DNA of 64,000 nucleotides from Zeus faber (Eukaryota; Chordata; Actinopteri; Zeiformes; Zeidae): contig OY482860.1 in assembly GCA_960531495.1 (NCBI GenBank), positions 2,004,622 through 2,068,621 on the forward strand, written 5' to 3'. The notes below the pieces were generated by a model. It had not been told where the DNA came from. It was given only the letters and a program-made list of their open reading frames with translations, and ran no database searches. The position numbers and the translations under genes were made by a program. Below, piece by piece: positions 14,255 through 63,035 of this stretch (its first letter is position 1; every line of letters begins with the position of its first letter).

Positions 14255-14792
14255 TGTCACAATTTAGTACATTTACTATAACATTCAACGATAATATATT
14301 AGTACGCTATATGAATCAAATAAGTGTGGGGAAATATTGAGTAAAGAAGATACCAATCTCCCCCAGTGCTGTTACAGTATGCTACCATTATAGATGATAA
14401 GGGGTGAATGAGTACAGTGGCTTTGTGTAATGTGTAGAGTTAACATGTTCCATATGTGGAGACACAAGCTCAGGTCCGGGAGGAGAACAGGGATCCAGTG
14501 GACAGATTTTCATATGTGGTAACACAAGCTCAAGACCAGGAGGAGTACAGGGCTACAGTGGACAGATTTCCATATAAGGAGTGAAAGTATGTTATGCTAT
14601 GGTGACGTATGGATGATAGAATGGAGCATATAAGCCAGCCTGGGGAGGGGCTCTGGAGTTCTTTGCAAACCAACTCAGGCTTTAATGTTACTGTTTTACA
14701 AGTGATAATAAAAGTCTTTATCTTTCAAACTTCGGCTTCCTCGATCTCTCTCTTATTTTGTCAATGTGTTAGAGTAGAGTTTATCTACCACA
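14255..14792 (+). repeat. ERV-A 5' LTR
   Basis: It aligns with the 3' LTR at 24489-24977 over nearly its whole length (shared AATCAAATAAGTGTGGGGA, GATACCAATCTCCC, CAGTGCTGTTACAGTATGC). It contains a TATA-like TATAA at 14629-14633 and a poly(A) signal AATAAA at 14707-14712, and it ends CTACCACA. It is longer than the 3' LTR because a block of about 60 bases (14451-14510) is repeated at 14511-14570, and a few bases near the start are also extra. Confidence 0.9.
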
Positions 14793-15981: not shown

Positions 15982-17638
15982 ATGTCACCAACAGAGGTAG
16001 AAATTCTGGGTAAAAAGAGTCTGTTAAATAAAGATGAGAAAGGAAAAAGGACAGCTAAGACAGCTACAAAATGGCCAAAAGAGGGAACATTGGATGCGGC
16101 AGTGTGTGAGGAGATGGGGAGGAGACATTAAAGGAGAGGTAGAATTGGACAAAGGGAGAGACAAGGATTGTGCAACACAGAGAGGGAGAGACACACCCGA
16201 GGCACATGGATTGTTACGAAGGGATTAATAAAACAATGAACGAGTGGGATAAAAATAGTGACAGTGAGGAGGGGGATGGTGATCCTTCAAGCAGAAGGAT
16301 TTTATCAGAAAGGAGATCATTTATCATTAGAAGGAGTGAAGGGAAGGAAAGGAAAATGTTTAGAAAAAAGAGGCAGGAGTGAGGGAGAGGAATGCTGCCA
16401 GGAGAGAGAGAGAGACAGGAAGAGAGCGCAGAGAGAAGAGGAGGGGGACCAGCCTGGAGGCAGTAAATCAGGACTAAGCCCCCTAGTACTAGAGCTGCAA
16501 GAAAAACTTAGGAGATATCAGAGGGAGAGAAGAGCGCCAAACAGTTATCCAGGAATTTATCCTATCCTGGTAAAAGGACAACAAGCTCAGTATGTCCCAT
16601 GGGGATCCCAGGATTTGGAGGGATTAGTATGTAAACTACCCAATATAAATGATGGGGCTTCAAAGTGCATTAAGATATTTGAGGAACATACAGTGGGAAA
16701 ATGAATGGCAGTGGGTGACCTGAAAGCTTTGTTGGCCAGAGTGCTAGGGATATCCAAGATGGAGAGCATACTGGAGAACGGGGGTTTGGGCCTGCTGCTG
16801 GATGAGGCTTTGATGGGACTATGTTTGACACATACAGACAAATAACCTGGGGTGTACTCAGAGGCGAGTACCCAACCCATGTGGATCACAAGAGCCTGAG
16901 GGGCCATACAATCGGCGACACAGAGAATCCTGCATCATTCCTGCAGAAACAAGTCATGAGATGGCGCATGGAAACAGAGAAAGATCCGGAGGAGGATCCA
17001 TTGGTCTCTATCTTGTTCAGAACCTCCATAATAGAGACAATGCCTAGCTCAATCAAAAACAAGCTAGAAGATGTGGTGGGACTGATCTCATCAAAATCCC
17101 ATAAAGAGTTCAGTGATCATCTGGTTCACGCAGTGGACAGACATCGTCAAAACGAACAAAGAATCCAAGAACAAAAGTTGTCTCAGCTCCAGTTGGAGGA
17201 GATGACAAAGAAAGATAAGAAAAAACAGGCAGTTGTTGCAGCACCTGCCACAACCACACCTGTTGTCCAACAGGCCCCGCCTCAAGCGTTCCTTCCTCAG
17301 GTTCCACCCCAGGCGTTCTCTCCCCTGGCACAACAGCCTCAGAGCCAAGGGGCACCCACCCCATCTGTTGTTAATGTATACACACATATTAGTGGGAATC
17401 CAAAATTTGGGAACAAACAGAACCAATATAGGGGACCACATGGACAGCCCAAGTATGCTCAGCAGCAGGAATAGCCTAACTATGCTGAGCAGCAAGGACA
17501 GTCTAGATATGCTCAAAAGCAGGGACCCCCTGGACAGCGCAGAGGGCCTATAGTATGTTGGGAATGTAACCAGCAAGGACACTTTAGCAGGAATTGTTTA
17601 ACTAACCCCTACCCACCAAAGCAGCAGGGACAGCAGTG
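15982..17638 (+). pseudogene. gag: ERV-A gag
   Basis: Gag forms the virion core. The likely start is the ATG at 15982, giving MSPTEVEILGKKSLLNKDEK, but a stop at about 16129 ends that frame. Gag sense continues in other frames: 16258-16704 (ending in LPNINDGASKCIKIFEEH) and 16821-17474, capsid-like and followed by a Gln/Pro-rich tail. The nucleocapsid zinc knuckle CWECNQQGHFSRNC (CX2CX4HX4C, about 17556-17597) follows a stop. No PPPY or PTAP motif was noticed. ERV-B gag has the same order. The repeated frame changes mean no full Gag is made. Confidence 0.85.
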
Positions 17639-17764: not shown

Positions 17765-18090
17765 TAATAAATGATCGAAGCACACCAATTATGGCTGATA
17801 CTGGAGCAACTTACACATGTGTAGGTTCAAATATGCCTCTCACCTCCCCATGGCAGGAAAATTTGCCAAAACTGTAGGATTCCTCGGGACAAACGCAGTT
17901 AACACCTATGACAGCTCCAGTGACAGTAAAGCTGCATGGACGTGCAGCTACGCTACCCATCTTGGTTTTAGATAACACACCGGTCAATTTAATAGGAAGA
18001 GATGCATTATGTAAATAAGAAACACAAATATTATGCACACCACAAGGCATATTGGCTGAACTTACAGGGATAGTACCTCAAATGGTAATA
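17765..18090 (+). pseudogene. pro: ERV-A aspartic protease
   Basis: The active-site motif MADTGATYTCV has DTGA at 17797-17808. The second conserved block LIGRDALC is near 17995-18012, a normal distance for a retroviral protease that acts as a dimer. A stop lies between them (about 17875) and another just after LIGRDALC. The next domain is in a different frame, so at least one frameshift separates protease from the rest of pol. The ERV-B counterpart is in one open frame with RT. Confidence 0.85.
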
Positions 18091-18113
18091 TCAAACCAGA
18101 CACAGCAAACATT

Positions 18114-18560
18114 TATTGGATAGGTGACATTCAAGAGCAAGTCAATGTAACAATGTGTAAGTGGGGAAGCTACATTAGAGCTCAAATCCCCCAGGCAAGA
18201 GAGTCAAGGACAGGATATCATTGCACCCTAATGTATGATCCACAACAGGACCCACAATTAGAAAAGGAATGGCAAAAGAAAGCTGCAGGGAAAAAAGTAA
18301 TGATAGAATCACAACACATAGTAATTGGACCACAAGGAGCAGCTATGAGAACACAGGATGCAGATCAATCATTAGCAATAAAAAATTGGTTTAGAGACAC
18401 TGACAAAGCACCTCACATTACTCTGCTGATAAACAAGGGTTTTGAAGCTAAACACTTGGGGGCAATGATGTTCTATCAAAAACAACTAAAATGGGAGGGA
18501 ACAGATAACCCATTAATTCTCCAGTCATGTTGTGGAAAGTATTTAAAAAAATTGTGTTAT
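18114..18560 (+). pseudogene. ERV-A extra Pol domain between protease and RT (2H phosphoesterase-like)
   Basis: After the protease the frame reads YWIGDI and then an ORF from 18153. It contains YHCTLMYDP (His-Cys-Thr-Leu at 18219-18230), a helix-like stretch, IVIGPQGAAM, and KAPHITLLINKGFE (His-Ile-Thr-Leu at 18414-18425). Two HxTL motifs 65 residues apart, each in a predicted beta strand, resemble the catalytic signature of 2H phosphoesterases, which cleave cyclic phosphates or 2'-5' linkages. Retroviruses normally have nothing here, or a dUTPase; this lacks dUTPase motifs. The same domain is in ERV-B. A single stop (18690-18692) separates it from RT in the same frame. The existence of a shared domain is clear; the 2H assignment is a hypothesis. 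Confidence 0.6.
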
Positions 18561-18692
18561 ACACACATGACAGGGGTTTTACAAGAAGTGGAAGTGGTCC
18601 AGAAACAACAGGAACCAATGGCAACAGGAAAGCCACACAATGATAGGCAGATGAAGATAGAGACAGAGATGGCAGCCAGAGTACCTGAATAG

Positions 18693-19440
18693 TTATGGTC
18701 AAAGTTTGACACCGATTTAGGATTGGTGCATTCGGCTAACCCAGTTAGAATCCAAACTAGACCAAATGCTAAACTACCATGGCGAAAACAGTACTACATG
18801 AAACCGGAGGCTGAGATAGGAATAGCTCCTACTATAGAAGGTCTAATAGCTGCGGGTGTATTGATAGAAACAAAAAGCGACTGTAACACTCCTTTGCTTC
18901 CAGTACTAAAACCAGACAAGCAAAAATGGCATTTAGTAAATGATCTAAGAGCCGTAATTGACGTTGTAGAAGACATGCAGGCAGATGTTTCGAATCCACA
19001 CACACTGCTGACCAATATTCCTCCTGATGCTAAATATTTCACAGTGATTGACTTATGTGGGGCATTTTTCAGTGTGCCTCTTGCAGAAGAAAGCAGACAT
19101 CTGTTTGCATTTATGTATAAAGGTAAACAACACACATATACAAGAATGCCACAGGGATTTAAACATTCTCCACGTGTTTAACCAGGTACTGAAAAATGAT
19201 TTGGAAGAGCTGGTGTTACACGGGACACTGATACAGTACGTGGATGATCTTCTGATATGCTCTCCCACATTGGAGCAATGTCATGAGGATTCCATGGCTG
19301 TATTAAGCAAATTGGCAATGGGGGGACACAAGGTATCACAGAAAGAATTGCTGTACTGCCAGACAGAAGTAGAATATTTAGGGAGGCTGGTAGCACATCA
19401 AACAAAAACAATAGCACCCAGCCAGTTCGAAGGGATTAGT
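18693..19440 (+). pseudogene. pol: ERV-A reverse transcriptase
   Basis: RT copies genomic RNA into DNA. 18723-19181 shows LPWRKQYYMKPEAE, HLVNDLRAVIDVVEDM, FTVIDLCGAFFSVPL (first catalytic Asp) and RMPQGFKHSP. A frameshift near 19175 moves the sense to the next frame, where QYVDDLLICSP holds the YVDD box (19237-19248), then SQKELLYCQTEVEYLG. Apart from the shift and the stop at 18690 the motifs are intact. Style and order match class-I (gamma/epsilon-like) retroviruses. Confidence 0.9.
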
Positions 19441-20460
19441 AAAGCACCTAAATCAGGGACAGTACGACAAATGATGAGATTCCTGGGGATGACAGGGTTC
19501 AGTTCAGATTGGATAGAGGACTATGCCCTTAAAACCGTGTCGCTAAGAGAGATTATGAAGGCTGCAGGAACAACTAACCTGCAAGCCCAGCTAAGGTGGA
19601 ATGCAGATGCATTGGCAGCATTCGAAGGCATTAACCAAGAGATGCAGGGAGCAAGTGCGTTAGCAATTCCAGACTACACAAAACCATTCCTATTCTATGT
19701 AGCAAATAGGAGTCAGGGGTACACATCAGCGGTGTTAATGCAAGAATCATGTAGTGGGAGGCGAAAACAACCTATAGCATACTACAGCTCCAAGTTAGAT
19801 GCAGTAGCACAAGGCTATCCGCCCTGTTACCAGGGATTAGCTGCGGTACATTATGCTTATGACAAGGCCTCGACCATTACGATGGGATACTCGGTAACTA
19901 TTTTGACGCATCACAAAGTCACTGAATTAATTGAACAAGGGAAATTTGTATTGATTTGTATTGACAACAACTCAAGGTTGTTGGAATATTTGACTTTACT
20001 TACATTTCCAGATGTTACCACAGAGGGTGTTCCACAGCAAATCCAGCAGAAGGAATTCTGCATGATTTTGAAGCAGCACCACATGATTGTGTAGCTGACT
20101 CTCTGACATATACCAAACTGAGGCCAGATCTATTGTCAACACCAATAATTGGGGCAGAGGAAAAGCTGTTTGTGGACGGATCTCGCTACAAAGATAATTT
20201 GGGTAACCATGCAGGGTTTGCAGTGGTAAGACAGAACCCAGACAAAACTTTTGCTGTTATTCAAAGTTCTCATTGTAAACAGCCATGTTCAGCACAGGTA
20301 GCCGAGTTGAGAGCTATTACAGCTGCCTGTCAAGAACGAACAGGTACAACAGCGAATATATACACAGATTCTGCGTATGCACATGATGTATGTCATTTGC
20401 TCGGAGCGGTATGGAAAATTAGGGGATTTAAGAAAACAGGGTTTGCTTATCACTAAAGTG
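19440..20460 (+). pseudogene. pol: ERV-A RT connection and RNase H
   Basis: The connection domain runs to about 20090 in the same frame as the YVDD half of RT (QPIAYYSSKLDAVAQGYPPC, then a TILTHHKVTEL-like strand). After a frameshift, RNase H (20133-20456) shows FVDGSRYKDN, AELRAITAACQ and YTDSAYAHDVCHL, supplying three of the DEDD metal ligands. The frame ends at a stop at 20454-20456 before the C-terminal His/Asp region, which is only weakly visible. RNase H would remove the RNA strand during reverse transcription. Confidence 0.85.
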
Positions 20461-21639
20461 CATGGTTTTGACCATTGCGCAAGGGGCTAAGTAGTGAGAA
20501 GAATCAGAAAACAAGGTTTTTGGTCACCATACCTGCAAACAATGGTTGATAATCAACTTAATGAATGTGAGGTATTTGCAAAAAATAATGTAAGAAAAAC
20601 AATTACTACTTCACTGGGACACATTCCTACAACCTACGGGACCATTTAGACATCTGGTCTTAGACTATGTGGACATGATTAAGAAGGAAGGATGGAAAGA
20701 TGGAAAAACATATATGTTAGTAGTCTTAGACAGATTTAGCAGATGGGTAGAGGCAGTCCCATCAAAATATCAAAGTGCGGCCACTGTAATCAAATTTCTG
20801 ACTAGAGAAGTCATGCCAAGGTTTGGAATTCCGACAGAAATAAGCTCAGACAATGGCTCAGCGTTTATTCAAAAAATAGTAAAACAAGTCATACAGCAGC
20901 TGCATGTCAAACAAAGGTTGGGTTGTGTGTACCATCCTCAGTCACAGGGGATGGTCGAAAGAGTATATGGGACCCTTAAGACAAAAATAAACAAAATTTG
21001 TGCAAGTGCTAAATTGAATTGGTAGATGCACTCCCACTAGCACTAATGAGTTATCGCATGCAAGCTAACAGAATGACACATTTAACTCCGCATGAAATTC
21101 TCATGGGTCGACCCATACCTGCACCTAACATTAGAGGACCCCATAAGGGACCTCCGTTGGAACAATTGCAATTGGAAATAAGGGAATATATTAAACAACT
21201 AACTGCCATACACAAGCGTATATTCCAACAGGAGAAAGACAGAGTTCCAGAGCCAGAAGATGACCCACCAAGGGGGGTGGAGCCCGGTGACCACGTGTAC
21301 CTTAGGGTCTTCAGGAGACGGTGGAACGAGCCCAGGAGAGAGGGACCATACAAATTGACCAGTGCAACACCAACAGCCATCCAGGTGGAAGGGAGCGCCA
21401 CCTGGTACCACCTCAACCACTGCACCAAAGCCGCCCAGCCAAGGATGAGTGAAGAGCGTGAGGAGAACCAGGATGCAGACGTACCCAGCACTGACCAACT
21501 GCCTCAGGACCAGACCCAGCCCAGCCAGGAGCCCCAGCCACAAGGAGAGGCCGAGGATGGTGCTGAAACTGGCGAGCCTGTTCCTGATACTCTACAGACT
21601 GGGGCAGATCCCATGGGCCCAAGGACGGATCCAGAGTAA
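20460..21639 (+). pseudogene. pol: ERV-A integrase
   Basis: Integrase inserts the DNA copy into the genome. The N-terminal zinc domain (20460-20660) is badly decayed. The catalytic core (20669-21025) has YMLVVLDRFSRWVEA (first Asp), SSDNGSAF (second Asp) and HPQSQGMVERVYGTLK (Glu), a complete DDE set, then a stop. The C-terminal part is open from 21019 to 21639 and includes GDHVYLRVFRRRW and REGPYKLTSATPTAIQVEG, a GPY/F-type module, ending in an acidic Gln/Pro-rich tail. Env starts inside this tail in another frame. Confidence 0.9.
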
Positions 21640-24297
21640 GGGGGATGTACCATCAACATGGCAGTCCCGGAATGACCAGATATCGAGAGACAGCACCAAA
21701 GAAAGCATGAAAGTGTTGCAACAACGGCCAATCCTGAGATATTCAGGAAGACTAAACAAAGCAAGAGAAAAGAGTTCGGACAAAATGGTTTTACAAGCTC
21801 AGATACCACCACAAGAATTAAAACTCGCGGACAAACAAGTTACTTTTACTGTCAAGGTAGAAGGAGAACAGCTATGTGGGGAAGCTTTGCACCAGAAACA
21901 CAAACTTCTAACCTGGGGACAAGACCAGTGTAAAATAGATATCCGGAAAGGACAAACCTAATGGTGTTTTAGGGTACAACCACAAAAACAATGGGACCAT
22001 GATAAAAATAAGTATAAATTAGATAAAGAAGAGGTCAGTTTCCGCAAATAAAATGAGAAATAACAGATCTTAAACAAGAAGCAGAAGCCTCTTGTATGAC
22101 ACAAGAGCAAAAAGACAAGGCCTCTCAGTCTGAACAATGTAAGTCGAAAGTAAATGCAACTCCGATTATTGATAAAGTAGACCAAACTCTGATTACTGAT
22201 AAAGTAAACGCAACTTTGATTATTGATAAAGTAAATGCAACTCAGATTATTGATAAAGTAGACCAAACTCCGATTACTGATAAAGTAAACGCAACTTCAA
22301 TTGTTGATAAAGTAAATGCAACTTTGATTATTGATAAAGAAAATGCAACTCTGATTACTGATAAAGTAAATGCAACTCCCATTATTGATAAAGTAAATGC
22401 AACTCCCATTATTGATAAAGTAAACGCAACTTCGATTGTTGATAAAGTAAACGCAACTTTGATTATTGATAAAGTAAATGCAACTCCGATTACTGATAAA
22501 GTAAATGCAACTCCGATTATTGATAAAGTAGACCAAACTCTGATTACTGATAAAGTAAACGCAACTTCGATTGTTGATAAAGTAAACTCAACTTTGATTA
22601 TTGATAAAGTAAACGCAACTCAGATTGTTTATAAAATAGAACTCAGATTATGGGTAAAGTAGGCCCAACCCCAGTTACAAATAAAAAAGATGAAACTTCA
22701 ATAGCCAATAAGCTAGCACAAACTTCGGTTTCTAACAAATTAGAAAGAGCCTCAGTGACAATAGAACCAAGAAAGAACCTAACTACGACTATGAAGAAAA
22801 CAACGGCCGCGAAACCAACAAACGCCTTAAAAACAATTGGTAATGATAACAATGCTAGCCCTACCTTATGGGTTAAAATGTTAACAACAAATGGTACCAC
22901 AGCCACTTTACAGAGTGAAGTAAATTGTACAACAACAATGCAAACAAAGGCAGAGACGAGCCCAACAATGACCCCAAAAGAGAATATACTAAGCACAAAG
23001 GCAACTACGATATCAATGGCCAATGGCCTGAAAATACGGTAAATAAGACGATAATATCGACATTCTCTTATGTGACTACTGTGACTAAAATCATAACAAC
23101 AATTCCAACACCTATATCCGAGATACGTGCAAAATCAGTGTTCAATCCAACTGGGAGTGTTGACCGCCTCTTAACAGCAAGAACCTTAAAACAGTATGAA
23201 CCTGACCCCTATGGACGCAAAATTAGGGTAAGAACAAAAGACCGGTTGTATGAACGAGCAAAAGCAAATAATTGGTATAAATGGGTGGAGTTCACTGGAA
23301 AACAGATAGATGCAGACAGCTGTTATTTATGTAGTACAAATCGTCAAAATGCATTGTACGTAATAAACACTAAATACAATTGGGAATTGTGTAGAGAAGA
23401 GAAGAGACAGCAAATCGGAGGCTTAGAAGAGAAAGAGTTGAGGGAACAGGCCGAACTGAATAAAACAGGAATAACAAGTAATAGATTCTCACATCATAAT
23501 AAGGTAGTAGTGTGTTCAATGCAATGTTTACTGTACCTAGGATCAAGTGAATACAACCAGTATTACAAAACTAAATGGGATGGAAGCCCTATGAACTTAA
23601 TTATGAAAAGATGTCGCGATATGGACATAAATCTATCCAACGCAGTAGGCGAAGTAACATTACGAATAGGAACAGATTTCCAAATAGAGGAGGGATTGGA
23701 GTGTTATCAAAATGACGAAGGAAGCGCAAATGCCTGTGATGTGGGCAGTGTGGAAGAAGCGCAATGTGGGACAATTTGGAATGTCACCAGATATGACAAC
23801 AACCGGATCGCACTACTAGGACAACCACCTGTTCAAACGGCAAAGAAGTCATTTGTGTCATCCCTGTGGGGTGATAGTGTATGTCAAACTCAGGATAAGA
23901 TGAAAATTGGCAGACCAATTTTGGATCTGCGGTAATAGGATTCTTTGCCCTGTACTATCTAAACTGTGGAGAGGTAGATGCACAAGAGTACAAGTGGCTA
24001 CAGCAACAGTACAGTACAAGTGGTTATGCAGGTTATGGAAGAGATTGGTTTGCATGGCTAGATTTAAAAATGGGACGTTGGGGAATGATGTTGACAATAG
24101 GTATAATACTCTTGGTGCTACTAATAATAATGGGTTTAATTTTTTGCTGTTGTATTCCCATAATGAGATCCATGATCGGGTCTAGGCTGAGCAAACAAAT
24201 GATCCTCACGTCAAGAGACACAGTCGAGTCAAAAGGGTTAGAATGGGAACATGTTGGAGACGGAAGCCAGAGTGATGATGTTGGTGATGAGGAATAG
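21557..24297 (+). pseudogene. env: ERV-A env
   Basis: Env is the receptor-binding and fusion protein. The start at 21557 overlaps the pol end by about 80 bases and gives a signal peptide (MVLKLASLFLILYRLG). The first frame stops at 21959-21961. The surface region then contains an 18-copy 9-residue repeat (22153-22638), a Ser/Thr/Asn-rich stretch, and an ORF at 22925-23935 with NNWYKWVEFTGKQIDADSCY and many Cys. A membrane anchor (MMLTIGIILLVLLIIMGLIF) and cytoplasmic tail end at 24297. The fusion-peptide and heptad part of the transmembrane subunit seems largely deleted around 23930. It is frameshifted and non-functional. Confidence 0.8.
22153..22638 (+). repeat. 27-bp tandem repeat coding for a 9-residue N-glycosylation motif
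   Basis: Eighteen in-frame copies of a 27-base unit encode variants of NATxIIDKV. Fifteen copies begin with Asn-Ala/Ser-Thr, an N-glycosylation sequon; three read DQT. In five the residue after Thr is Pro, which would weaken glycosylation. The phase is kept for 486 bases although the flanking env frame is broken, and substitutions are mostly shared between non-adjacent copies, which suggests higher-order duplication. Confidence 0.95.
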
Positions 24298-24488: not shown

Positions 24489-24977
24489 TGGGAGAATTTA
24501 ACTATAACATTCAACAGTAATACATAAGTTTTATCTTGCCTACACACAATATGAATCAAATAAGTGTGGGGAAATATTGAGTAAAGAAGATACCAATCTC
24601 CCTCAGTGCTGTTACAGTATGCTACCATTATAGATGATAAGGGGTGAATGAGTACAGTGGCTTTGTGGAATGTGTAGAGTTAACATGTTATATGTGGAGA
24701 CACAAGCTCAGGTCCAGGAGGAGTACAGGGATCCAGTGGACAGATTTCCATATAAGGAGTGAAAGTATGGTATGCTATGGTGACGCATGGATGATAGATG
24801 TGTAGAATGGAGCATATAAGCCAGCCTGGGGAGAGGCTCCGGAGTTCTTTGCAAACCAACTCAAGGCTTTAATGTTACTTGTTCACAAGTGATAATAAAA
24901 GTCTTTATCGTTCAAACTTGGGCTTCCTCAATCTTTCTTATTTTGTTAAAGTGTTAGAGTAGAGTTTATCTACAACA
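24489..24977 (+). repeat. ERV-A 3' LTR with preceding polypurine tract
   Basis: It starts TGGGAGAATT directly after the tract AAAGGGGGGATATA (24475-24488), which primes plus-strand synthesis. It ends TACAACA and has AATAAA at 24894-24899. It carries one copy of the block that is doubled in the 5' LTR. The two LTRs differ at a moderate number of sites, so the insertion is not recent. Confidence 0.9.
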
Positions 24978-30796: not shown

Positions 30797-30868
30797 GGGT
30801 GCCCAGAAGACTCGAAAGGGAGGTGTCAGCTGGTAGTATCACGGCCGGAGCAAGATCCAAAAATAGAG

Positions 30869-32473
30869 GTGAAAATAAATGATAAGCCATTGGAAGTAAT
30901 GGCAGATTGCGGAGCAGCTTTCACCTGTGTTCGGCCTAATTATCTCCCCATGTCTGACCAATTGGTACGGACAATCGGGTTTGAGGGTGTGAAACAGCTG
31001 ATTCCTCTCACAAAACCAATTGAGCTCTGCTGTAGAAATCGGAAAATCACACTACCTATTTTGGTGTCAGAACATACGCCCATTGCACTCTTGGGAAGAG
31101 ATGCTATGTGCAAACTAAATTGTACAATACGGTGTACACCGGACGGCTGTCTGGTGGATGTGCCACCTGATGTCTACCACCAATTATCTATGGCACCAGT
31201 GGCCGAGACTTCTTCAGTATATTGGATTGGAAATCTTAGTCCAGAGCTATTAGAGCCAGCCAAGATGTGGGAGAAGTTCATTGTGGCAAATATGCCTGAT
31301 GCTAAGCCCCCTGAGTATCCACATCAGTGCACGCTGAAATATTTCAAGAAAGCTGGCCATTTGGATCCGGAAGAATGGTTGAGTTGTCAACCCAAGCATG
31401 TTCAGCTGACATCATGTTGTATAATTGTGGGACCACAAGGAGCAGCTATGAAGATAAACACGAATAAGTATCTTGAGAAAGAGTACGACATTGAGAAAAG
31501 TGTGCCACATGTCACTTTAATGGTGGCTGAAGGATTTGAGCAGAACCATATAGGAGAAATGATGGCAGAAGATGAGGAAGCCATTTTTTCACCAATAAAG
31601 GAGAATCTTGCTATCTGGATGAGTGAAGAACAGAAGTTCATGAAAATCATGATTTCAGCTCAAGAACAACGACAACCACAAGTGGTACAGATGACACATG
31701 AGTCAATGTTCAGCGCTAAATTGGACTCAGACAGCATGAGAGAGGAGATGCTGCAACAAATTCCAGAATGTTTGTGGTCACGACATAGTACTGACATCGG
31801 ACTTGTGAAGTCAGCCCAACCGGTGAAAGTTGAACTGAGACCAGGAACCAAACCTCCTTGGAAGAACCAAAACCCACTCAAGGAGGAGGCAATCAAAGGG
31901 ATTGAACCACAAATTGAAGGACTGTTAAAAGCAGGTGTTGTGGAAATATGTTTTGATCCTCAGAGCAATACGCCTATATTGCCTTTAAAGAAACCAGATG
32001 AGTCCTATCGCTTGGTACATGATTTAAGAGCGATAAATGAAGTGGTGCAGGATTTTCCAGCAGATGTACCAGATCCACATACCTTGTTAGCCCAAATTCC
32101 TCCAGAGGCTATACACTTCATAGTGTTGGATTTGTGTGGAGCATTTTTCAGTGTTCCACTGAGCGAAGAAAGTCAAGGATTGTTTGGATTCACATACAAA
32201 GGACAAACCTTCAAGTATAAGAGGCTTCCTCAAGGATTCAAACATAGCCCGCACATTTTCAATAAAGTGTTGCAGGGTGACTTGGCTGTGATGGATCAGA
32301 TCTTGAAAAGTACTGTCATTCAGTATGTGGACGACATCGTCATCTGTTCACCAGATAAGGAAACGTGCCATGAGGACTCAATCAAACTGTTACAGCTACT
32401 GGCAGACAAGGGACACAAGGCCTCTCAGAAGAAGCTACAGTATTGTCAAAAAAAAGTTGTTTATTTGGGTTAA
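30869..32473 (+). CDS. pol: ERV-B protease, extra domain and RT in one open frame (534 codons)
   Basis: This is the best-preserved retroviral frame here. Residues 10-80 are protease, with the active site reading DCGA (13-16) where DTGA or DSGA is usual, and LLGRDAM at 74-80. Residues 118-232 are the extra domain: VYWIGN, PHQCTLKYF (152-159), IIVGPQGAAM (185-194) and SVPHVTLMVAEGFE (211-224). Residues 301-534 are RT: LVHDLRAINEVVQDF, VLDLCGAFFSVPL (catalytic Asp 421), RLPQGFKHSP and QYVDDIVIC (YVDD 486-489). A stop at 32471 follows VVYLG, and the same frame continues with pol-like sequence, so this is probably a nonsense mutation. RT motifs are intact; the Cys in the protease site would probably impair cleavage. 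Confidence 0.9.
   Translation: MKINDKPLEVMADCGAAFTCVRPNYLPMSDQLVRTIGFEGVKQLIPLTKPIELCCRNRKITLPILVSEHTPIALLGRDAMCKLNCTIRCTPDGCLVDVPPDVYHQLSMAPVAETSSVYWIGNLSPELLEPAKMWEKFIVANMPDAKPPEYPHQCTLKYFKKAGHLDPEEWLSCQPKHVQLTSCCIIVGPQGAAMKINTNKYLEKEYDIEKSVPHVTLMVAEGFEQNHIGEMMAEDEEAIFSPIKENLAIWMSEEQKFMKIMISAQEQRQPQVVQMTHESMFSAKLDSDSMREEMLQQIPECLWSRHSTDIGLVKSAQPVKVELRPGTKPPWKNQNPLKEEAIKGIEPQIEGLLKAGVVEICFDPQSNTPILPLKKPDESYRLVHDLRAINEVVQDFPADVPDPHTLLAQIPPEAIHFIVLDLCGAFFSVPLSEESQGLFGFTYKGQTFKYKRLPQGFKHSPHIFNKVLQGDLAVMDQILKSTVIQYVDDIVICSPDKETCHEDSIKLLQLLADKGHKASQKKLQYCQKKVVYLG
31220..31600 (+). other. ERV-B copy of the extra Pol domain (2H phosphoesterase-like)
   Basis: This domain lies inside the open frame above and aligns with the ERV-A copy through YWIG, CTLxY, IVGPQGAAM, PHxTLxxxxGFE and the H-L/I-G-x-MM block. 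The second His motif (HVTL, 31508-31519) is kept. At the first, the aligned position is Gln (CAG, 31325-31327) with a His one residue earlier, where ERV-A has HCTL. That pattern needs two single-base changes, so one of the copies has probably lost or shifted the catalytic His. Confidence 0.6.
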
Positions 32474-34455: not shown

Positions 34456-34852
34456 TGTCACGACCAGAACTGGGAGAGACCCAAACGCACGACACAGGGA
34501 GACAGAAGGCAGGCAAAGGATGTTAATTCGCCGGGACGGTGGAGCTGGCAGGGGGGACCCAGTCCGGTAGGGATGGAGCAGGGCAGGGCAGGGATGATGA
34601 TGTCCAGGAGATGGGGTCCAGGATCCGGGTGGAGAGACGGGGAACCAGGCTGGATGGAGATGGACGGGCAGCCTTGATCGACGAGCGGAGACAGGCAGGT
34701 AAACCGGGCTAGCTGGCAAGGAATGACTAGAAAGCTGGGACTAAATACTGTGCAGGTAATTGATCCCAGGTGTGTGCAATCGGGCTTGAGTAGGGAGCTG
34801 CAGATGGGGCAAGGGTGGCCTCTAGTGGCGCTGGGAGGCCGTGTGCCTAACA
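34456..34852 (-). repeat. Gypsy 3' LTR with internal deletion
   Basis: It is 397 bases against 538 for the partner. It lacks the block between GGGCTAGCTGG and CAAGGAATGACTAG. The deletion borders share CTGGC-like microhomology with the intact LTR. Confidence 0.9.
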
Positions 34853-36030
34853 GTACCCCACTCTCTACGGACGCCCCTTGGCGGACACCTGGAGGCAGAA
34901 GGGTGAGTTCGGTTGAAATGGATGAGGGAGGCATCCAGGATCTGTCTCCGGGGGACCCAGGAGTGTTCCTCCGAGCCGTATCCCTCCCAGTCCACAAGGT
35001 ACTGGAAGCCCCTCCCCCGGCGCCGCACATCCAGCAGACGCCGCACTGTGTAGGCCGGGTGGCCGTCGATGGTGCGGGGGGGTGGTGGGGCCTCAGCGGG
35101 GAGGGAGAGAGGGCTGGAAACCACTGGCTTAAGCAGGGATACATGGAAGGTAGGGTGGACACGGAGGGAGGGAGGGAGACGGAGGCGTACGGCACAGGGG
35201 TTGATGATTGACACAATGGGGAAGGGGCCAACAAACCGGGGAGCGAGTTTTCAGGAGTCCACCTTGAGGGGCAAGTCCTTTGTGGAGAGCCATACCATCT
35301 GGCCGGGGACGTATGTGGATGCGGACGCACGGTGCCGGTTCGCCTGCCGCTGGGACCTGGCAGAGGCCCGGAGTAGGGCAGAGCGGGCCCTCCTCCACGT
35401 CCTCCGGCAGCGACCAATGTGGGCCTGGACGGAGGGAACGGCGATCTCTCCTGGGCCGGGAACAGCAGGGGTTGGTAGCCCAGAGAGCATTGGAAGGGCG
35501 ACAGGCCGGAGGAGGCGTTCACCAGGGTGTTGTGGGCGTACTCGGCCCATGGCAGCCTCTCGCTCCAGGAGGTGGGGCTGGTGGTTGTCAGGCAGCGGAG
35601 CATGGCCTCCACCTCCTGGTCTGCCCGCTCCGTCTGGCTGTTGGTCTGGGGGTGGAAACCGGAGGAGAGACTGACCTGTGCCCCCAGGGCCGAGCAGAAG
35701 GTGCGCTAGACCTGGGAGGTGAACTGGGGTCCTCTGTCCGACACCACGTCTGCCGGGATGCCATGGTGGCGGAACACCTCGGTCACCAGCAGGTCTGCGG
35801 TCTCCCTCGCCGATGGTAGCTTGGGCCGGGCGAGGAAGTGGGCCGCCATAGAAAAGCGGTCCACCACCGTGAGGATGGTAGTGTTGCCCCGGGATGGTGG
35901 AAGACCGGTGACGAAGTCCAGGGCCATGTGGGACCAAGGACGAGTCGGGATGGGCAATGGGTGGAGGAGCCTCGACTCGATCTCCCAGGTGTGTGTGGCG
36001 GCAAGGCACAGGGGTGGAAGGATGGGTTCA
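34853..36030 (-). pseudogene. pol: Gypsy integrase with C-terminal chromodomain
   Basis: After RNase H the sequence goes almost directly to the integrase core, so the N-terminal zinc domain is missing. Core motifs are [15 protein letters not shown] and [13 protein letters not shown] (Asp), [12 protein letters not shown] (Asp) and, after a frame change, the region preceding [20 protein letters not shown]. The chromodomain at the C-terminus (about 35052-34920) reads [20 protein letters not shown] followed by [18 protein letters not shown]. Chromodomains bind modified histones and guide integration, which places this in the chromovirus branch. Confidence 0.88.
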
Positions 36031-36900
36031 GGATCCCCTGTCTTCTCCTCTGGCGCGAACACATGGGACAGGGCGTCAGGTTTGGTGTTCTTGGTTCCTG
36101 GGCGGTAGGATAGAGAGAAGTTAAACCGGCCAAAAAACAACGCCCACCTGGCCTGCCGGGAGTTGAGCCGCTTCGCCGTCCGGATATAGGCCAAGTTCTT
36201 ATGATCGGTCCAGACGACGAAGGGGTGGATTGCTCCCTCAAGCCAGTAAAGCCATTCCTCCAGGGCTAGTTTGACGGCCAGTAGTTCCCGGTTACCCACG
36301 TCATAGTTGCGCTTGGGTGGGGTGAGCCTGCGGGACAGAAAGGCACAGGGGTGGAGCATACCATCGGTTGGGGAGCGCTGAGAAAGTACTGCTCCTACCC
36401 CCGTGTCTGAAGTGTCCACCTCTACCACAAACTGGAGGTTGGCGTCGGGCTGGGCCAGGACTGGGACCGAAGAAAAGCGGCTCCACCGTTGCGGAGGTCG
36501 AGCTTAGAAAAATGGGTGGCACCCCGGATGGGGACGAAGACTGAATCCATCAGGGGCAAGGGGTACTTGTCTTTGATAGTGATGTCGTTAAGTCCCGTGA
36601 AATCAATGCAAGGACGGAGGGTCTTGTCCTTCTTAGCCACAAAGAAGAACCCTGCGCCTAGCGAAGAAGACGAGGGGCGAATAATCCCGGCAGCGAGAGG
36701 GTCGCGGATGTAAGTTTCCATGGCCTCCTTTTCGGGCCGGGAGACGTTATACAGGGGACTGCAGGGGAGGGGGGCGCCTGGCAGGAGGTTGATTGCGCAG
36801 TAGTAGGGGCGATGAGGTGGTAAGGATAGCGCCCCCTGCTTGCTGAAGACCGGGGGCCAGGTCCAAATTTTGCGATGGGACCGAGGGCAGGTCAGGGTTC
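36030..36900 (-). pseudogene. pol: Gypsy RT (core deleted) and RNase H
   Basis: RT begins in the frame at 36961-36422 with [37 protein letters not shown] and [11 protein letters not shown] (first Asp). There the sequence jumps to the end of RT; the YxDD palm region is absent, a deletion of roughly a hundred codons. RNase H then follows (36428 down) with [29 protein letters not shown] and VVWTDHKNL, supplying Asp-Glu-Asp. The deletion makes RT inactive. Confidence 0.88.
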
Positions 36901-36949
36901 TTGGGGGCCCCCAGCGGCGCGCCCGGCGGCGGGGTTGAGGCCGAGCGGA

Positions 36950-38344
36950 GGCAGTGGGCATGACAGTGTGTGCTCCAGGACCTCACGCCGCCCGAGCGCC
37001 AGTCCATCTGAGGGTTGTGGGTCTGGAGCCAGGGGTACCCCAGAACCACGGGGTTCAGTGGGGAATCAATGAGGAAGAACCTTGAGGACTCACGGTGGCT
37101 GCCGGAGAGTAGCAGCTTGAGGGGAGCTGATTGGTGGGTAATCCGGGTCAGATGTGACCCGTTCAGCCCCTTGACCTTGAGCGGTGCGGGGAGAGGGATG
37201 GGTGTCAGCCCTAGCTGGCGTGCTAGTCCATGGTTGAGAAAACTCGCATCCGCCCCGGAATCTAGGAGAGCGGTGGAAGAGCGTGTTATATCTCCCCACG
37301 AGAGGGTAACTGGGAGCAGCGGACGGGAGAGAGGGTTGGCGCTGGAGCGACCGGAACTTAACCCTACCGAGGAGTCGCCCTCTCGTGGCGGGACCCGGCA
37401 GGTGGCTCGGAGGTGTCCCAGCTGGACGCAATACAGACAGGCGCCGGCGTGCTCGCTCCTTGGGGGAGATCCGGGAGCGACCAAGTTGCATTGGCTCGGC
37501 ATCGGAAAGAGTCGGGGGACTTCTGAGGCGCCCAAGAGTAGCGGGCGCTTGAGTGGAGCTGGCGTGGCCGCCCAGGCGGGAGGCACGGACTGGAGTTTCG
37601 CCCCCTCCCTCTCACGCTGGCGCTCCCGTAGCCGGTTGTCCAGGCGGATGGCGTTCTCTACTAGTTGGTCCAGGTCCGTGGGCTCATCCCGCTGCGCCAA
37701 CTCGTCCCGCAACTCGTCGTTCAGGGCGCGCTGAAACACGTCCTGCAGGGCTCCGTCTATCCAGCCGCTTTCTGTGGCTAGAGTCTGGAACTCGACGACG
37801 AGTGAGGCGACGCTACGGGAACCCTGGCGGAGGGAGAGGAGTCTTCTGGCGGCCTCCTTGCCGCAAACTGGGTGGTCGAAGACTCTCCTCATTTCGCGGA
37901 TGAACAGATCGTAGGAGAGACTCACGGGGCCCCCCTGACTCCAAACCGCGGAACCCCAGCTGAGAGCCGCCCCTCTCAGGCAGGAGATGAGGAACGCGAT
38001 GCTGGCACTATCGGAGGCGTACGACGACGGCCGCTGTTGAAAAACCACCGCGCACTGCACGAGGAAGGCGCGGCAGGGGCCGAAATCGCCGTCGTAAGGC
38101 GCTGGAGCCGGAACGTGGGGCTCAGGGGGGACGAGAGAGGCGCTGGGAGCCCTGGTGGGGGAAGAAGGGCGGGTCGGAGGAGCAGGGGGGGCCACGGGGG
38201 CCGGAGGACCCTGCAGGCTGCTGACGGCTGCCGAGATGTCCGGAGGTGTTCCGCGATGTCCCGGAGGGCCTGGTCATGTTGCCCAAGCAACACTCCTTGG
38301 TCCCGGAGTGCGCATCGGAGCCCTTCTGTGTCAGCTGGGTCCAT
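36950..38344 (-). pseudogene. gag: Gypsy gag and protease
   Basis: Gag starts at 38344 (MDPADTEGLRCALRDQGVLL) and shifts frame near 38190 into a 482-codon frame ending at 36747. That frame has capsid-like sequence (FLISCLRGAALSWGSAVWS, FDHPVCGKEAARRLLSLRQG), a zinc knuckle CLYCVQLGHLRATC (residues 253-266) and the protease site ALLDSGADASFLN (309-321). One frameshift separates the first 50 or so codons; the rest is open, which is unusual among elements in this window. Confidence 0.88.
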
Positions 38345-38365
38345 GTTTTCCTGGCCAGAATGTAC

Positions 38366-38903
38366 TGTCACGACCAGAACTGGGAGAGACCCAAACGCAC
38401 GACACAGGGAGACAGAAGGCAGGCAAAGGATGTTTACTAGCCGGGACGGTGGAGCTGGCCGGGGGGACCCGGTCGGGTGGGGATGGAGCAGGGCAGGGAT
38501 GATGATGACCAGGAGATGGGGTCCAGGATCTGGGTGGAGAGACGGGAAACCAGGCTGGATGGAGATGGACGGGCAGCCTTGGTCGACGAGCGGAGACAGG
38601 CAGGTAAACCGGGCTGGCTGGATTTGGAGAGACAGACTTGGTCGACGAGAGGAGACTAGCAGGTAAGGGGAAGACGAGACAACGAGACATGAACTAGGAA
38701 CTAGGAATAGGCACTAGGAAGGGAGCCAATAGCGATACAAATCGGGGAAAGCTAGTTTACGGTCTGGCAAGGAATGACTAGAAAGCTGGGACTAAATACT
38801 GTGCAGGTAATTGATCCCAGGTGTGTGCAATCGGGCTTGAGTAGGGAGCTGCAGATGGGGCAAGGGCGGCCTCTAGTGGCGCTGGGAGGCCGTGGGCCTA
38901 ACA
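38366..38903 (-). repeat. Gypsy 5' LTR
   Basis: It is 538 bases and nearly identical to the 34456 copy outside the deleted block and to the solo LTR at 40396-40942, so the family was active fairly recently. It ends directly before the gag leader (ATG on the minus strand at 38344). Confidence 0.92.
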
Positions 38904-38974
38904 CTAATGTTGCAGAGGTATTGCGGTTAACTACTGCTGCGCCTCAGATGATTTCTACAACTCCAATTTCTGCA

Positions 38975-60170: not shown

Positions 60171-62942
60171 TCATGATCCTACGGGCTCTGCTACTACACC
60201 TCCTGGTGTATAGCTCCTGCAAGGGGGGAGGGTAGTTCCAGCGGTACGTTCAGCTGAACGCACCACCCTCTGCAGGGCCTGCCTGTCCTGGGCAGTACAG
60301 TTCCCAAACCAGGCAGTGATGTTGCCTGTCAGGATGCTCTCCACTGCTCCAGAGTAGAAGGACTTGAGGATCCTCACCGAGACCCGGAATTTCCTCAGCT
60401 GCCTGAGGTGGTAGAGACGCTGCCTCCCCTTTCTCACCAGAGTGTCTGTGTGAACAGTCCATGTTAAGTCCTCTGTGATGTGGACTCCCAGATATCTGAA
60501 GCTGCTCACCCTGTCAACAGAAGTCCCATTAATCCACAAGGGCGCGTGCGTCCTCGATTGTGATCCACACCTAAAGTCCACAATCAGCTCCTTGGTTTTG
60601 CTGACGTTCAGGTGGAGGCTGTTGTCCTGGCACCAGAGTGACAGGTCAGCCACCTCCTCGCGGTAGGCCTTCTCATCGCAGTCGGTGATCAGGCCCACGA
60701 CCACGGTGTCGTCAGCAAACTTGATGATGGTGTTGGAGCTGGACCTGGCCACACAGTCATGTGCGTACAGGGAGTACAGTAGGGGGCTGAGGACGCAGCC
60801 CTGGGGGGATCCTGTATTCAGGGTGAGGGAGCTGGACATGTACTTCCCCACCTTGACCACCTGGGGGCGGCCTGTGAGGAAGTCCAGGATCCAGGTGCAC
60901 AGCGGACCATTCAATCCGAGCTCCTTCAGCTTGACAGCCAGTCTGGTGGGGACTATGGTGTTGAAAGCTGAACTATAATCGATGAACAGCATTCTCACAT
61001 AGGCCCCCTTCTGGCCATCCAGGTGCGTGAGCGTGGTGTGCAGTACCTGGGAGACCTCGTCATCCGTGGATCTGTTTTGCCGGAACGCGAACTGCAACGG
61101 GTCCAAGGTGCGGGGAAGAGAGGCGCAGATGTAGTCCTTAATCAGCCTCTCGAAACACTTCATGACCACCGAGGTGAGGGCCACCGGACGGTAGTCATTC
61201 AGGCAGGTTGGAGAGGCGATCTTCGGGACAGGAACGACGGTGGACCTCTTGAAACAGGACGGGACCACTGATTCAGCCAGGGAGATGTTGAATATTGTAG
61301 TGAACACCGGAGCTAGCTGGTTAGCACAGGTCTTCAGTACTCGCCCAGATATGCGATCTGGGCCCGCAGCTTTCCTGGTGTTCACCCGCATCAAAGCCCT
61401 CCTGACCTCGTGCACGGACACTGAGAGTGCGCGCTCATCCCCAGCGGTGTAACTCCAATTAGCCGGCGAGCTAGCGGTGTTGCTGCCAGACTCGAACCGC
61501 GCATAAAAGGAGTTCAGTTGGTTGGCCAGGGAGGCGTCCACACTCGTGGCTGGGGAGGCGCTGCTCTTGTAGTTTGTTATTGTTCGCAGCCCCTCCCACA
61601 AGCGTCTTGTGTCCCCCCGCTCCATCTGTAGCTCCACGGTCTCTCTGTACGTCCGTTTGGCGTCCCTCACCGCACTCCGCAGATTGTACGACGCCGCTTT
61701 GTAATTGTCCATGTTACCAGATACAAGACCGTCGTTGTAAGCGGCCGTGCGCTCATTCAGAGCGCAGCGGATGGATTTATCAACCCATGGTTTCTGGTTT
61801 GGAAATATCCGAACTTTCACCGTGGGAACGATTTCATCCGCGAGCGTAGCCACAAAACTTACTACAGCCTCCGTAAACTCGCTGACGTCACTTGAACTTG
61901 TTTGGAACATGTCCCAGTCTACGTCAGTCAGAGCGTCCTGAAGCGCAGCCTCCGATTGGTCCGTCCACCGCTTCACTTCCCTCGTCATCACCAGATCCCG
62001 CGCGATCAGAGGCCTGTAAACAGGAAGCAGCGAGATTGCGGCGTGATCTGATTTCCCGAAAGCAGGGAGCGAGACGGGCTTGTATCCGTTCTTGTAAGGA
62101 GTGTAACAATGGTCCAGAGTTCTGTCTCCCCTGGTGGCACACGTGATGTGTTGGTGGAAATTCGGCAGAACTTTTTTAAGGTTGGCCCTGTTAAAGTCCC
62201 CAGTCACCACCACAGCCGCGTCGGGATGTCTGTTCTGAAATCCGCACAACACATCGTACAGAACCGACAGAGCTGCGTCGGTGTCCGCTTGCGGTGGGAT
62301 ATAAACGGCTGTAATGATGACCGTGCTGAATTCCCGGGGGAGATAAAATGGATGGCATAGTATGGTCAGCTGTTCCAGGTTCGGCGAGCAGGAGTGGGAG
62401 AGGAATTTGGTGTTGTTGGCGTTACACCAGCGGTTGTTTACCATTAGGCAGACGCCTCCACCTTTGGATTTCCCCGACTCTCCCGTTCTGTCGCCGCGGA
62501 ACACGGAGAAGGCCTCGGCTGGACGTTTGGCTTCATCCGGCACCAGTGGGTTCAGCCATGTTTCCGTCAGGCAGAGGACGCAACAGTTCCTCGTGTCTCG
62601 CTGGAATTGAATCCTCGCTCGAAGTTCATCCATCTTGTTCTCCGGGGACTGGACGTTAGCAAGAAGGATGCTTGGCAGAGGTGGACGGTAAGGTTGCGTC
62701 CTCATTCTGACCCGAATGCCGCCTCGTTTACCTCGGTGCTTCCTCCGTGGGCCGGCTCGTGGAACAGCGGCTCTATTTTTGTTGTAGTTGTTGTTGTTGC
62801 GAGTGTTCTCGCGTAGGATTTCCGCCGGCCACTCTGCTCCCACTGATAAAAAGTCCCAAAGTTGTTCGTTTAGGGAAATTTTTATAGCCATGAGTGCATC
62901 GCGGTCGTATGAGTTAATTGTTGATGTTTTTTTGGCGAACAT
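60171..62942 (-). CDS. LINE ORF: endonuclease and reverse transcriptase (923 codons)
   Basis: The protein nicks DNA and reverse-transcribes the element's RNA at the nick. The endonuclease (about residues 85-310) has LANVQS (Asn 96), TETWL (Glu 127), GDFNRANL (Asp 249, Asn 251), TLDHCY and KSDHAAI (Asp 299, His 300). RT (about 560-850) has [54 protein letters not shown] (FADD 742-745) and [12 protein letters not shown]. No internal stop occurs. The last 20 or so residues (from about 60233) are out of frame relative to the other copy, which continues LQDLFTRRC, so a small indel truncates the C-terminus. Confidence 0.93.
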   Translation of the reverse strand: MFAKKTSTINSYDRDALMAIKISLNEQLWDFLSVGAEWPAEILRENTRNNNNYNKNRAAVPRAGPRRKHRGKRGGIRVRMRTQPYRPPLPSILLANVQSPENKMDELRARIQFQRDTRNCCVLCLTETWLNPLVPDEAKRPAEAFSVFRGDRTGESGKSKGGGVCLMVNNRWCNANNTKFLSHSCSPNLEQLTILCHPFYLPREFSTVIITAVYIPPQADTDAALSVLYDVLCGFQNRHPDAAVVVTGDFNRANLKKVLPNFHQHITCATRGDRTLDHCYTPYKNGYKPVSLPAFGKSDHAAISLLPVYRPLIARDLVMTREVKRWTDQSEAALQDALTDVDWDMFQTSSSDVSEFTEAVVSFVATLADEIVPTVKVRIFPNQKPWVDKSIRCALNERTAAYNDGLVSGNMDNYKAASYNLRSAVRDAKRTYRETVELQMERGDTRRLWEGLRTITNYKSSASPATSVDASLANQLNSFYARFESGSNTASSPANWSYTAGDERALSVSVHEVRRALMRVNTRKAAGPDRISGRVLKTCANQLAPVFTTIFNISLAESVVPSCFKRSTVVPVPKIASPTCLNDYRPVALTSVVMKCFERLIKDYICASLPRTLDPLQFAFRQNRSTDDEVSQVLHTTLTHLDGQKGAYVRMLFIDYSSAFNTIVPTRLAVKLKELGLNGPLCTWILDFLTGRPQVVKVGKYMSSSLTLNTGSPQGCVLSPLLYSLYAHDCVARSSSNTIIKFADDTVVVGLITDCDEKAYREEVADLSLWCQDNSLHLNVSKTKELIVDFRCGSQSRTHAPLWINGTSVDRVSSFRYLGVHITEDLTWTVHTDTLVRKGRQRLYHLRQLRKFRVSVRILKSFYSGAVESILTGNITAWFGNCTAQDRQALQRVVRSAERTAGTTLPPCRSYTPGGVVAEPVGS

Positions 62943-63035
62943 TATGATAAAAAAGGAAAAAAATACTAAAAAGTAAGAAAGTAACCGGAGCGCCGGCGCA
63001 GGCGACCGCTAGGGGCGGCGCCACTATCGCCACTA

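What the first reader, a model, noticed from the sequence alone, without database searches (positions are those of the whole stretch)
18114..18560. Extra Pol domain with two HxTL motifs between protease and RT (ERV-A)
Seen: a domain of about 115 residues starting YWIGD, with HCTL (18219-18230) and HITL (18414-18425) 65 residues apart and IVIGPQGAAM between, in the same frame as RT. Known: 2H phosphoesterases carry two HxT/S motifs in beta strands, and members in some RNA viruses cleave 2'-5' oligoadenylate and blunt the OAS/RNase L response. Inference: these fish ERVs may have acquired a 2H-like enzyme as a Pol domain. The motif spacing is a little short for the family (often about 75-90), so the assignment is tentative, but the domain itself is real because ERV-B shares it.
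Basis: partly seen in the sequence, partly recalled or inferred. Interest (0 to 1): 0.85.

Follow-up and report, generated by a model that had tools for sequence, protein, structure and literature searches.

The report
Two-histidine enzyme-like domain in fish retroviruses
Fossil retroviruses in this genome, probably a fish's, carry between their protease and their reverse transcriptase an extra protein domain that looks like a small two-histidine phosphate-cutting enzyme; such domains in fish retroviruses have been noted in print before, but I saw no report of what this one does.

Summary
At 18105-18611 the Pol frame of ERV-A encodes about 165 residues (not 115) with HCTL and HITL 65 residues apart, between protease and RT. 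ERV-B has the domain in the same place. The genome gives at least 151 matches; relatives occur in five named teleosts. In 60 aligned copies His1 is kept in 59, and His2 in 57 of the 58 with a residue there. Between two ERV-A subfamilies dN/dS is 0.12 for the domain and 0.11 for the RT region, so it was kept as a working part of Pol. A 2H phosphoesterase is the best identification, not a proof: 2H families lead the Pfam matches, in 6 of 11 members and all below cut-off; a profile alignment pairs both histidines with LigT, but 4 of 200 shuffles score as high and the program's own probability is 1.2%; AlphaFold models were too poor. The OAS/RNase L inference is not supported. A 2022 review already lists certain fish retroviruses as 2H carriers. 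A new member of a known kind.

The parts
14272..14792 (+). 5' LTR of ERV-A (edges approximate)
   Evidence: Direct repeat with 24498-24977; 29 substitutions in 457 aligned columns, 87 gap columns left out, K2P 0.066
16806..17474 (+). ERV-A gag piece (capsid-like)
   Evidence: Pfam Gag_p30 E=2.1e-4, 21.3 bits, below the cut-off of 27.4
17791..18090 (+). ERV-A protease remnant (DTGA motif), edges approximate; its start is in another frame than the domain in this copy
   Evidence: Read; matches database protein P0004, which carries Pfam PF00077
18105..18611 (+). 2H-like Pol domain of ERV-A, the finding
18219..18230 (+). Motif 1, HCTL
   Evidence: His in 59 of 60 aligned copies
18414..18425 (+). 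Motif 2, HITL
   Evidence: His in 57 of the 58 aligned copies with a residue there
18693..19181 (+). ERV-A reverse transcriptase, first part, same frame as the domain
   Evidence: Pfam RVT_1 E=2.9e-9
19048..20094 (+). ERV-A RT continuation and RNase H-like domain
   Evidence: Pfam RT_RNaseH_2 E=9.2e-16
20594..21639 (+). ERV-A integrase, two open pieces
   Evidence: Pfam rve 3.4e-17 and MLVIN_C 1.8e-11
24498..24977 (+). 3' LTR of ERV-A (edges approximate)
30848..31129 (+). ERV-B protease
   Evidence: Pfam RVP 5.2e-9 at residues 18-111 of ORF 30797-32473
31205..31700 (+). 2H-like Pol domain of ERV-B (first motif degenerate: HQCTL)
   Evidence: tblastn E=3e-16; translation
31988..32470 (+). ERV-B reverse transcriptase
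   Evidence: Pfam RVT_1 4.7e-27 at residues 398-558 of the same ORF

Best explanation
The domain is a 2H-phosphoesterase-type module fixed in the Pol polyprotein of a group of fish class I (gamma/epsilon-like) retroviruses, between protease and RT. It is made as part of Gag-Pro-Pol and was catalytically intact in the lineages that spread. I think most likely that the viral protease frees it, or leaves it joined to RT, inside the particle. There its two histidines would act as general acid and base, without metal, to open or cut a phosphodiester that involves a ribose 2'-oxygen: a 2',3'-cyclic phosphate on RNA ends, or a 2'-5' bond in RNA or in a nucleotide messenger. Shown: position, frame, motif conservation, purifying selection about as strong as on RT between two subfamilies, spread. 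Inferred: 2H fold, catalysis, release, substrate, and the class I and fish assignments.
For: Both motifs are kept in nearly all copies, including an H-C-S-V variant in P0012 that still fits the 2H pattern. Domain dN 0.083 / dS 0.667 = 0.12 over 166 codons, against 0.11 over 449 codons of the RT region, L001 vs L005. Of 11 members scanned against Pfam, 2H-SAK matches 3 (best E 0.0046), LigT_PEase 3 (0.0059) and 2_5_RNA_ligase2 2 (0.0052), in six members altogether; each of the other six families listed matches one member. By coordinates LigT_PEase, which covers a single HxT repeat (recalled), matches the first motif region of P0011 and P0014 and the second of P0006, which puts both histidines near profile position 36 (column inferred by counting). 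The hhalign alignment to 18 LigT/ThpR sequences spans 141 columns and pairs both HxTL motifs; score 18.6, column-shuffle mean 11.6, 4 of 200 reach it. Protease, domain and RT lie in one open frame in ERV-B and in P0012. A review reports 2H domains in certain fish retroviruses.
Against: No Pfam match reaches its curated cut-off (best 17.7 bits against 27), five of 11 members have no 2H match, in P0014 a GNAT family scores better than LigT, and the LigT matches of P0011 and P0014 have no stretch that passes on its own. NCBIfam found no 2H family. In PHROGs the best matches are families without a name (phrog_14095 E=0.00097, phrog_10525 E=0.0072), whose nature I do not know; one named 'RNA ligase' is at 0.23. 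A profile of 11 members and one single-sequence search found no 2H chain in the PDB up to E=10. hhalign's own probability is 1.2%, E=0.043. Both AlphaFold models are poor; only the second was searched, with no hit at E<=0.001 and no named 2H protein in the 50 rows shown of 172 (BFVD) and of 120 (PDB). Spacing is shorter than the family average. Within young copies dN/dS is higher (median 0.35 in A, 0.59 in B).
Confidence: 0.68

Rival explanations
1. The domain is a 2'-5' phosphodiesterase that destroys 2-5A and blunts OAS/RNase L, as coronavirus NS2 and rotavirus VP3 do.
For: Characterised 2H enzymes of nidoviruses and rotaviruses do this (abstracts and passages); the motif type is the same. 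A 2018 study lists fish among animals with OAS genes (abstract), and a review has OAS and RNase L coupled in jawed vertebrates (passage).
Against: No match to that subfamily was seen. Another paper states that genomes of some teleosts show no OAS genes (passage). The search for OAS in this genome did not complete. Pol products are few per particle (recalled), a poor dose for a cytoplasmic messenger (inference).
Confidence: 0.15
2. The domain is an RNA-end enzyme for viral RNA or its tRNA primer: it opens 2',3'-cyclic phosphates left by ribonucleases so that ends can be repaired or extended. (This is one form of the best explanation.)
For: LigT/ThpR, with which a profile alignment pairs both motifs, are annotated as RNA 2',3'-cyclic phosphodiesterases. 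The review offers such a role for a subset of RNA-virus 2H domains. Its place next to RT fits.
Against: No direct evidence; well-studied retroviruses manage without it (recalled).
Confidence: 0.35
3. The domain has no catalytic role: a spacer or RT extension that merely kept two HxTL motifs.
For: The fold was not confirmed. The window's ERV-B copy lost His1 and still has a long open frame.
Against: Histidines and Thr/Ser are near invariant across A- and B-types that are only about 30% identical; purifying selection.
Confidence: 0.1
4. It is not a 2H domain but another fold with coincidental HxTL motifs.
For: All Pfam matches are sub-threshold, hhalign probability 1.2%, the best PHROGs matches are unnamed families, no 2H chain in the PDB searches.
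Against: Three 2H families are the only ones matched by more than one member; the profile alignment pairs both motifs; prior report of 2H in fish retroviruses.
Confidence: 0.14

Closest known systems
2H domain of fish retroviruses, e.g. walleye dermal sarcoma virus (review PMC9503650, citing Mazumder et al. 2002)
   Same: Fish retrovirus; 2H domain. That the 2002 paper places it in polyproteins is my recall of its abstract.
   Different: Their sequences were not at hand, so homology with this domain and identical position are untested.
LigT/ThpR RNA 2',3'-cyclic phosphodiesterase (PF02834, PF13563)
   Same: Two HxTL motifs; the alignment pairs both.
   Different: Stand-alone cellular enzymes; spacing 82 in E. 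coli ThpR (counted) against 61-65 here; similarity sub-threshold.
2H-SAK (PF22547)
   Same: Lowest Pfam E-value seen, 0.0046.
   Different: 17.7 bits against a cut-off of 27; only the first half or so of the domain is matched.
Nidovirus and rotavirus 2',5'-phosphodiesterases (AKAP7-like)
   Same: Virus-encoded, two HxT/S motifs.
   Different: No specific similarity seen; other virus groups; substrate 2-5A.
CNPase-like ORF of teleost retroviruses (Basta et al. 2009, as cited in PMC4977317)
   Same: Fish epsilon-like ERV with a gene for a 2H-superfamily type enzyme (CNPase listed under 2H).
   Different: Described as an additional ORF; the paper was not held, so whether it is this domain is unknown. 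No CNPase family appeared among the Pfam matches.
Retroviral dUTPase (lentiviruses, betaretroviruses; recalled)
   Same: A host-type nucleotide enzyme built into the polyprotein as an extra domain.
   Different: Unrelated fold and chemistry.

Membership tests
2H phosphoesterase superfamily | Two H-phi-[ST]-phi motifs, conserved | tested here: met
   60 aligned copies: His1 59 of 60; His2 57 of 58 with a residue; Thr/Ser 60 of 60 at motif 1 and 58 of 59 at motif 2. Position 2 of motif 1 is Cys in 59 and Ser in 1.
2H phosphoesterase superfamily | Motif spacing, average about 80 residues (passage) | tested here: inconclusive
   Of 56 copies with both histidines: 65 in 23, 61 in 30, and 48, 54, 60 in one each
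2H phosphoesterase superfamily | Sequence profile match above the curated cut-off | tested here: not met
   Best 17.7 bits vs 27 (2H-SAK), 17.2 vs 23.3 (LigT), 17.3 vs 27 (2_5_RNA_ligase2). This is a limit of detection, not a structural feature.
2H phosphoesterase superfamily | Internally duplicated fold, each half giving one histidine | tested here: inconclusive
   LigT_PEase matches one half in two members and the other half in a third, weakly; own half-versus-half comparison reduces to the motif alone, 2 of 100 shuffles; AlphaFold too poor
2H phosphoesterase superfamily | Metal-independent phosphoesterase activity | not testable with these tools
   Needs purified protein
AKAP7-like viral 2',5'-phosphodiesterases | Specific sequence or structural similarity to AKAP7/NS2/VP3 | tested here: inconclusive
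   No such chain among PDB matches up to E=10; no usable model
Retroviral Pol domain | In frame between protease and RT, under purifying selection | tested here: met
   in ERV-A one stop lies between domain and RT, in ERV-B none

The most novel reading that the evidence does not exclude
The domain is a particle-carried enzyme that cuts 2'3'-cGAMP through its 2'-5' bond, so that an incoming fish retrovirus disarms cGAS-STING at the site of reverse transcription: a Pol-borne counterpart of poxin. Nothing in the sequence points to cGAMP in particular; the reading rests on the chemistry of 2H enzymes (recalled) and on the place next to RT.
Probability: 0.1. Interest if true: 0.88.

Novelty: new member of a known kind. 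Interest (0 to 1): 0.45.

Why it matters
Extra enzyme domains fixed in retroviral Pol are few (dUTPase is the usual example; recalled). Here one has been kept under selection about as strong as that on RT, in an ERV group with relatives in percomorph and characiform fishes. If active, it would show which RNA end or nucleotide signal limits reverse transcription in fish cells. The purified-domain assay is simple, so an assignment in print since 2002 becomes directly testable.

Tried and rejected
Structure: two AlphaFold jobs with 12 and 13 sequences gave mean pLDDT 38.9 and 43.0. Foldseek was run on the second model only and gave no hit at E<=0.001 in BFVD or PDB (50 rows shown of 172 and of 120). 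I draw nothing from these. The top BFVD row (Q2VF30_1, 1072 residues, probability 0.13) has no name in the table and was not pursued.

Relatives in virus collections: three scans of IMG/VR with the domain, one with RT and one DNA pattern (51 stretches) gave no relative; the best tblastn among the 51 was E=0.064, taken as chance. tblastn of the ERV-B domain against phages: none.

Profile comparisons: a first hhalign against a narrow LigT set gave 52 columns around motif 1 only, probability 1.3. A home-made profile alignment collapsed to the motif and was set aside (retro vs LigT 0 of 100 shuffles, half vs half 2 of 100). A PDB profile of whole Pol pieces listed RT-bearing chains in the 60 of 417 rows shown. 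The best PHROGs matches, unnamed families, were not pursued.

dN/dS: the rows for L002 and L003 are void, because those loci lie in the opposite orientation; only L001 vs L005 and L001 vs L004 count. The protease stretch there crosses a frame change in the window's copy and is unreliable. In one search, 34 of 48 fetched copies were used (14 dropped for stops, truncation or frameshift), and of 136 pairs per type 91 (A) and 98 (B) passed the dS filter.

Considered and rejected: a chance ORF (at least 151 matches, selection); dUTPase or macro domain (no Pfam match).

Full report
What is there. The window holds two endogenous retroviruses in + orientation. ERV-A has LTR-like repeats at about 14272-14792 and 24498-24977 that differ at 29 of 457 aligned columns (87 gap columns left out; K2P 0.066), a gag remnant, a protease remnant, RT, RNase H-like domain and integrase, in several frames. 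ERV-B (pieces from about 29.2 to 34.3 kb) has one open frame, 30797-32473, with protease, the extra domain and RT. A PDB profile search of the Pol pieces puts p80 and MMLV reverse transcriptases ahead of HIV and Ty3, and ERV-A integrase matches the MLV C-terminal domain family; from this I infer class I (gamma/epsilon-like). All five relatives with a species name are teleosts, so I take it to be a teleost.

The domain. It runs from about 18105 to 18611, not 115 but about 165 residues, with HCTL at 18219-18230 and HITL at 18414-18425. It is in frame with RT, from which one stop (18690-18692) separates it in this copy. The layout would fit a 2H domain: a strand (NIYWIGD), a helix, HCTL; then a second half with IVIGPQ, a helical stretch and HITL, and two or three further strands. 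This is my reading of the sequence and of the low-confidence models, not a determined fold.

How widespread. A search of the window's assembly (803 Mb) with the ERV-A domain gave 151 matches, a lower bound because only 150 candidates were scored, and some rows are pieces of one copy. They fall into A-like (about 40-100% identical) and B-like copies (about 33-38%); one fetched copy, L028, is more divergent. Long open frames around many copies (up to 1,495 residues) suggest recent activity. Protein databases hold relatives in Micropterus dolomieu, Dicentrarchus labrax, Scophthalmus maximus and Mugil cephalus (all Percomorphaceae) and in Prochilodus magdalenae (Characiformes). P0012 has protease, domain and RT in one 642-residue protein.

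Conservation. I aligned the 48 fetched genome copies (ERV-A of the window is one of them), 11 database proteins and the window's ERV-B domain, 60 in all, 58 distinct. Histidine 1 is present in 59 of 60; the exception is the window's own ERV-B (HQCTL). Histidine 2 is present in 57 of the 58 with a residue there; L009 has Pro, L012 is frameshifted and P0004 ends before it. Motif 1 position 3 is Thr in 59 and Ser in 1. Of the 56 with both histidines, spacing is 65 in 23 and 61 in 30; three have 48, 54 or 60. RT pieces of A and B are 57% identical, the domains 31%. The domain thus changes faster than RT between lineages, yet the motifs stay.

Selection. Between ERV-A of the window (L001) and a subfamily with long open frames (L005), dN/dS is 0.12 for the domain (166 codons), 0.11 for the RT region (449 codons) and 0.49 for the protease stretch (119 codons, 14 skipped; unreliable because of a frame change); against L004 the values are 0.14, 0.11 and 0.39. 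Within young copies the ratio is higher: median 0.35 over 91 A pairs and 0.59 over 98 B pairs, at median dS 0.06 and 0.03, ratio of sums 0.21 and 0.65, as expected after insertion. The contrast says that the domain was selected while the virus replicated.

What family. Pfam gives only weak matches. Of 11 members scanned against 24,736 models, 2H-SAK matches three, LigT_PEase three and 2_5_RNA_ligase2 two (six members altogether), best E 0.0046-0.0059; each of the other six families listed is matched by one member, and five members have no 2H match. None reaches its cut-off. LigT_PEase matches the first motif region in P0011 and P0014 (with no stretch passing on its own, and behind a GNAT family in P0014) and the second in P0006. 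hhalign of 39 retroviral sequences (11 after its own filter) against 18 LigT/ThpR sequences (9, the rest) aligns 141 columns with both motifs paired; 4 of 200 column shuffles score as high, and the program's own probability is 1.2%. The PDB searches and NCBIfam gave no 2H match. The best PHROGs matches are unnamed families (E 0.00097 and 0.0072), an 'RNA ligase' family following at 0.23. The fold searches rest on a model too poor to use. Together I put 2H homology at 0.85, resting in part on the literature.

Prior knowledge. [quoted passage not shown] 2002. That paper was not held; from memory its abstract speaks of polyproteins of certain retroviruses. PMC4977317 (passages) cites Basta et al. 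2009 for a CNPase ORF in some fish ERVs; that paper was not held. The 2024 study of captured viral phosphodiesterases (PMC10835031) does not contain 'retrovir' in its held text (find), nor does PMC8406329 (find). A zebrafish ERV survey (PMC8672886) holds none of six related terms (find). My searches for 2H with retroviruses (titles and abstract starts, lists capped) showed no paper that describes this domain, but the library lacks most subscription journals. Whether the domain here is the one found in walleye dermal sarcoma virus I could not test; that is the main gap in the novelty judgement.

How it most likely works. As part of Gag-Pro-Pol it would be packaged in few copies per particle next to RT (recalled for Pol in general). 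Two conserved HxT motifs suggest metal-free acid-base chemistry on a ribose 2'-oxygen phosphodiester. RNA 2',3'-cyclic phosphates are my first candidate, because LigT/ThpR is the known enzyme family that aligns over the whole domain; a cyclic or 2'-5' linked messenger is second. The 2-5A reading is weaker for a fish virus, but open: OAS genes were not found in some teleost genomes (PMC2852836, passage), while another paper lists fish among carriers (PMC6307210, abstract and passages) and a review says OAS and RNase L became coupled in jawed vertebrates (PMC12922763, passages). My own search for OAS in this genome did not complete.

Verdict. Real, conserved and constrained; probably a 2H enzyme; a new member of a kind already noted in print. 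Interest 0.45, because the function is untested in anything I saw and easy to test.

Noticed in passing
22147-22635 (+): In the ERV-A region after integrase an 18-copy tandem array of a 27-nt unit encodes a 9-residue repeat (KVNATPIID type), 15 of 18 units with an N-x-T glycosylation sequon; possibly a glycan-rich N-terminal stretch of Env.
   Followed up: partly
31202-31700 (+): The window's ERV-B copy has HQCTL where the 23 fetched B-type copies keep the histidine: a decayed active site in an otherwise open frame.
   Followed up: yes
34456-38906 (-): A Gypsy-type element (gag and aspartic protease ORF 36747-38273, LTR-like repeats 34456-34855 and 38366-38906) sits right after the ERV-B integrase piece and may have inserted into it.
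   Followed up: no
60171-63008 (-): A 945-residue ORF with endonuclease-like and RT domains and an ALKBH8_N match: probably a LINE-type element.
   Followed up: no
L028 (G000:C21:23586121-23587140): A third, divergent domain type (41% to B) with LHCTL and LHITI motifs, hinting at further ERV families with the domain.
   Followed up: partly
18096-18617 and its relatives (alignment A3): The strongest PHROGs match of any member is to an unnamed phage family, phrog_14095 (E=0.00097), with phrog_10525 next (E=0.0072, two members); what these families are is unknown to me.
   Followed up: no
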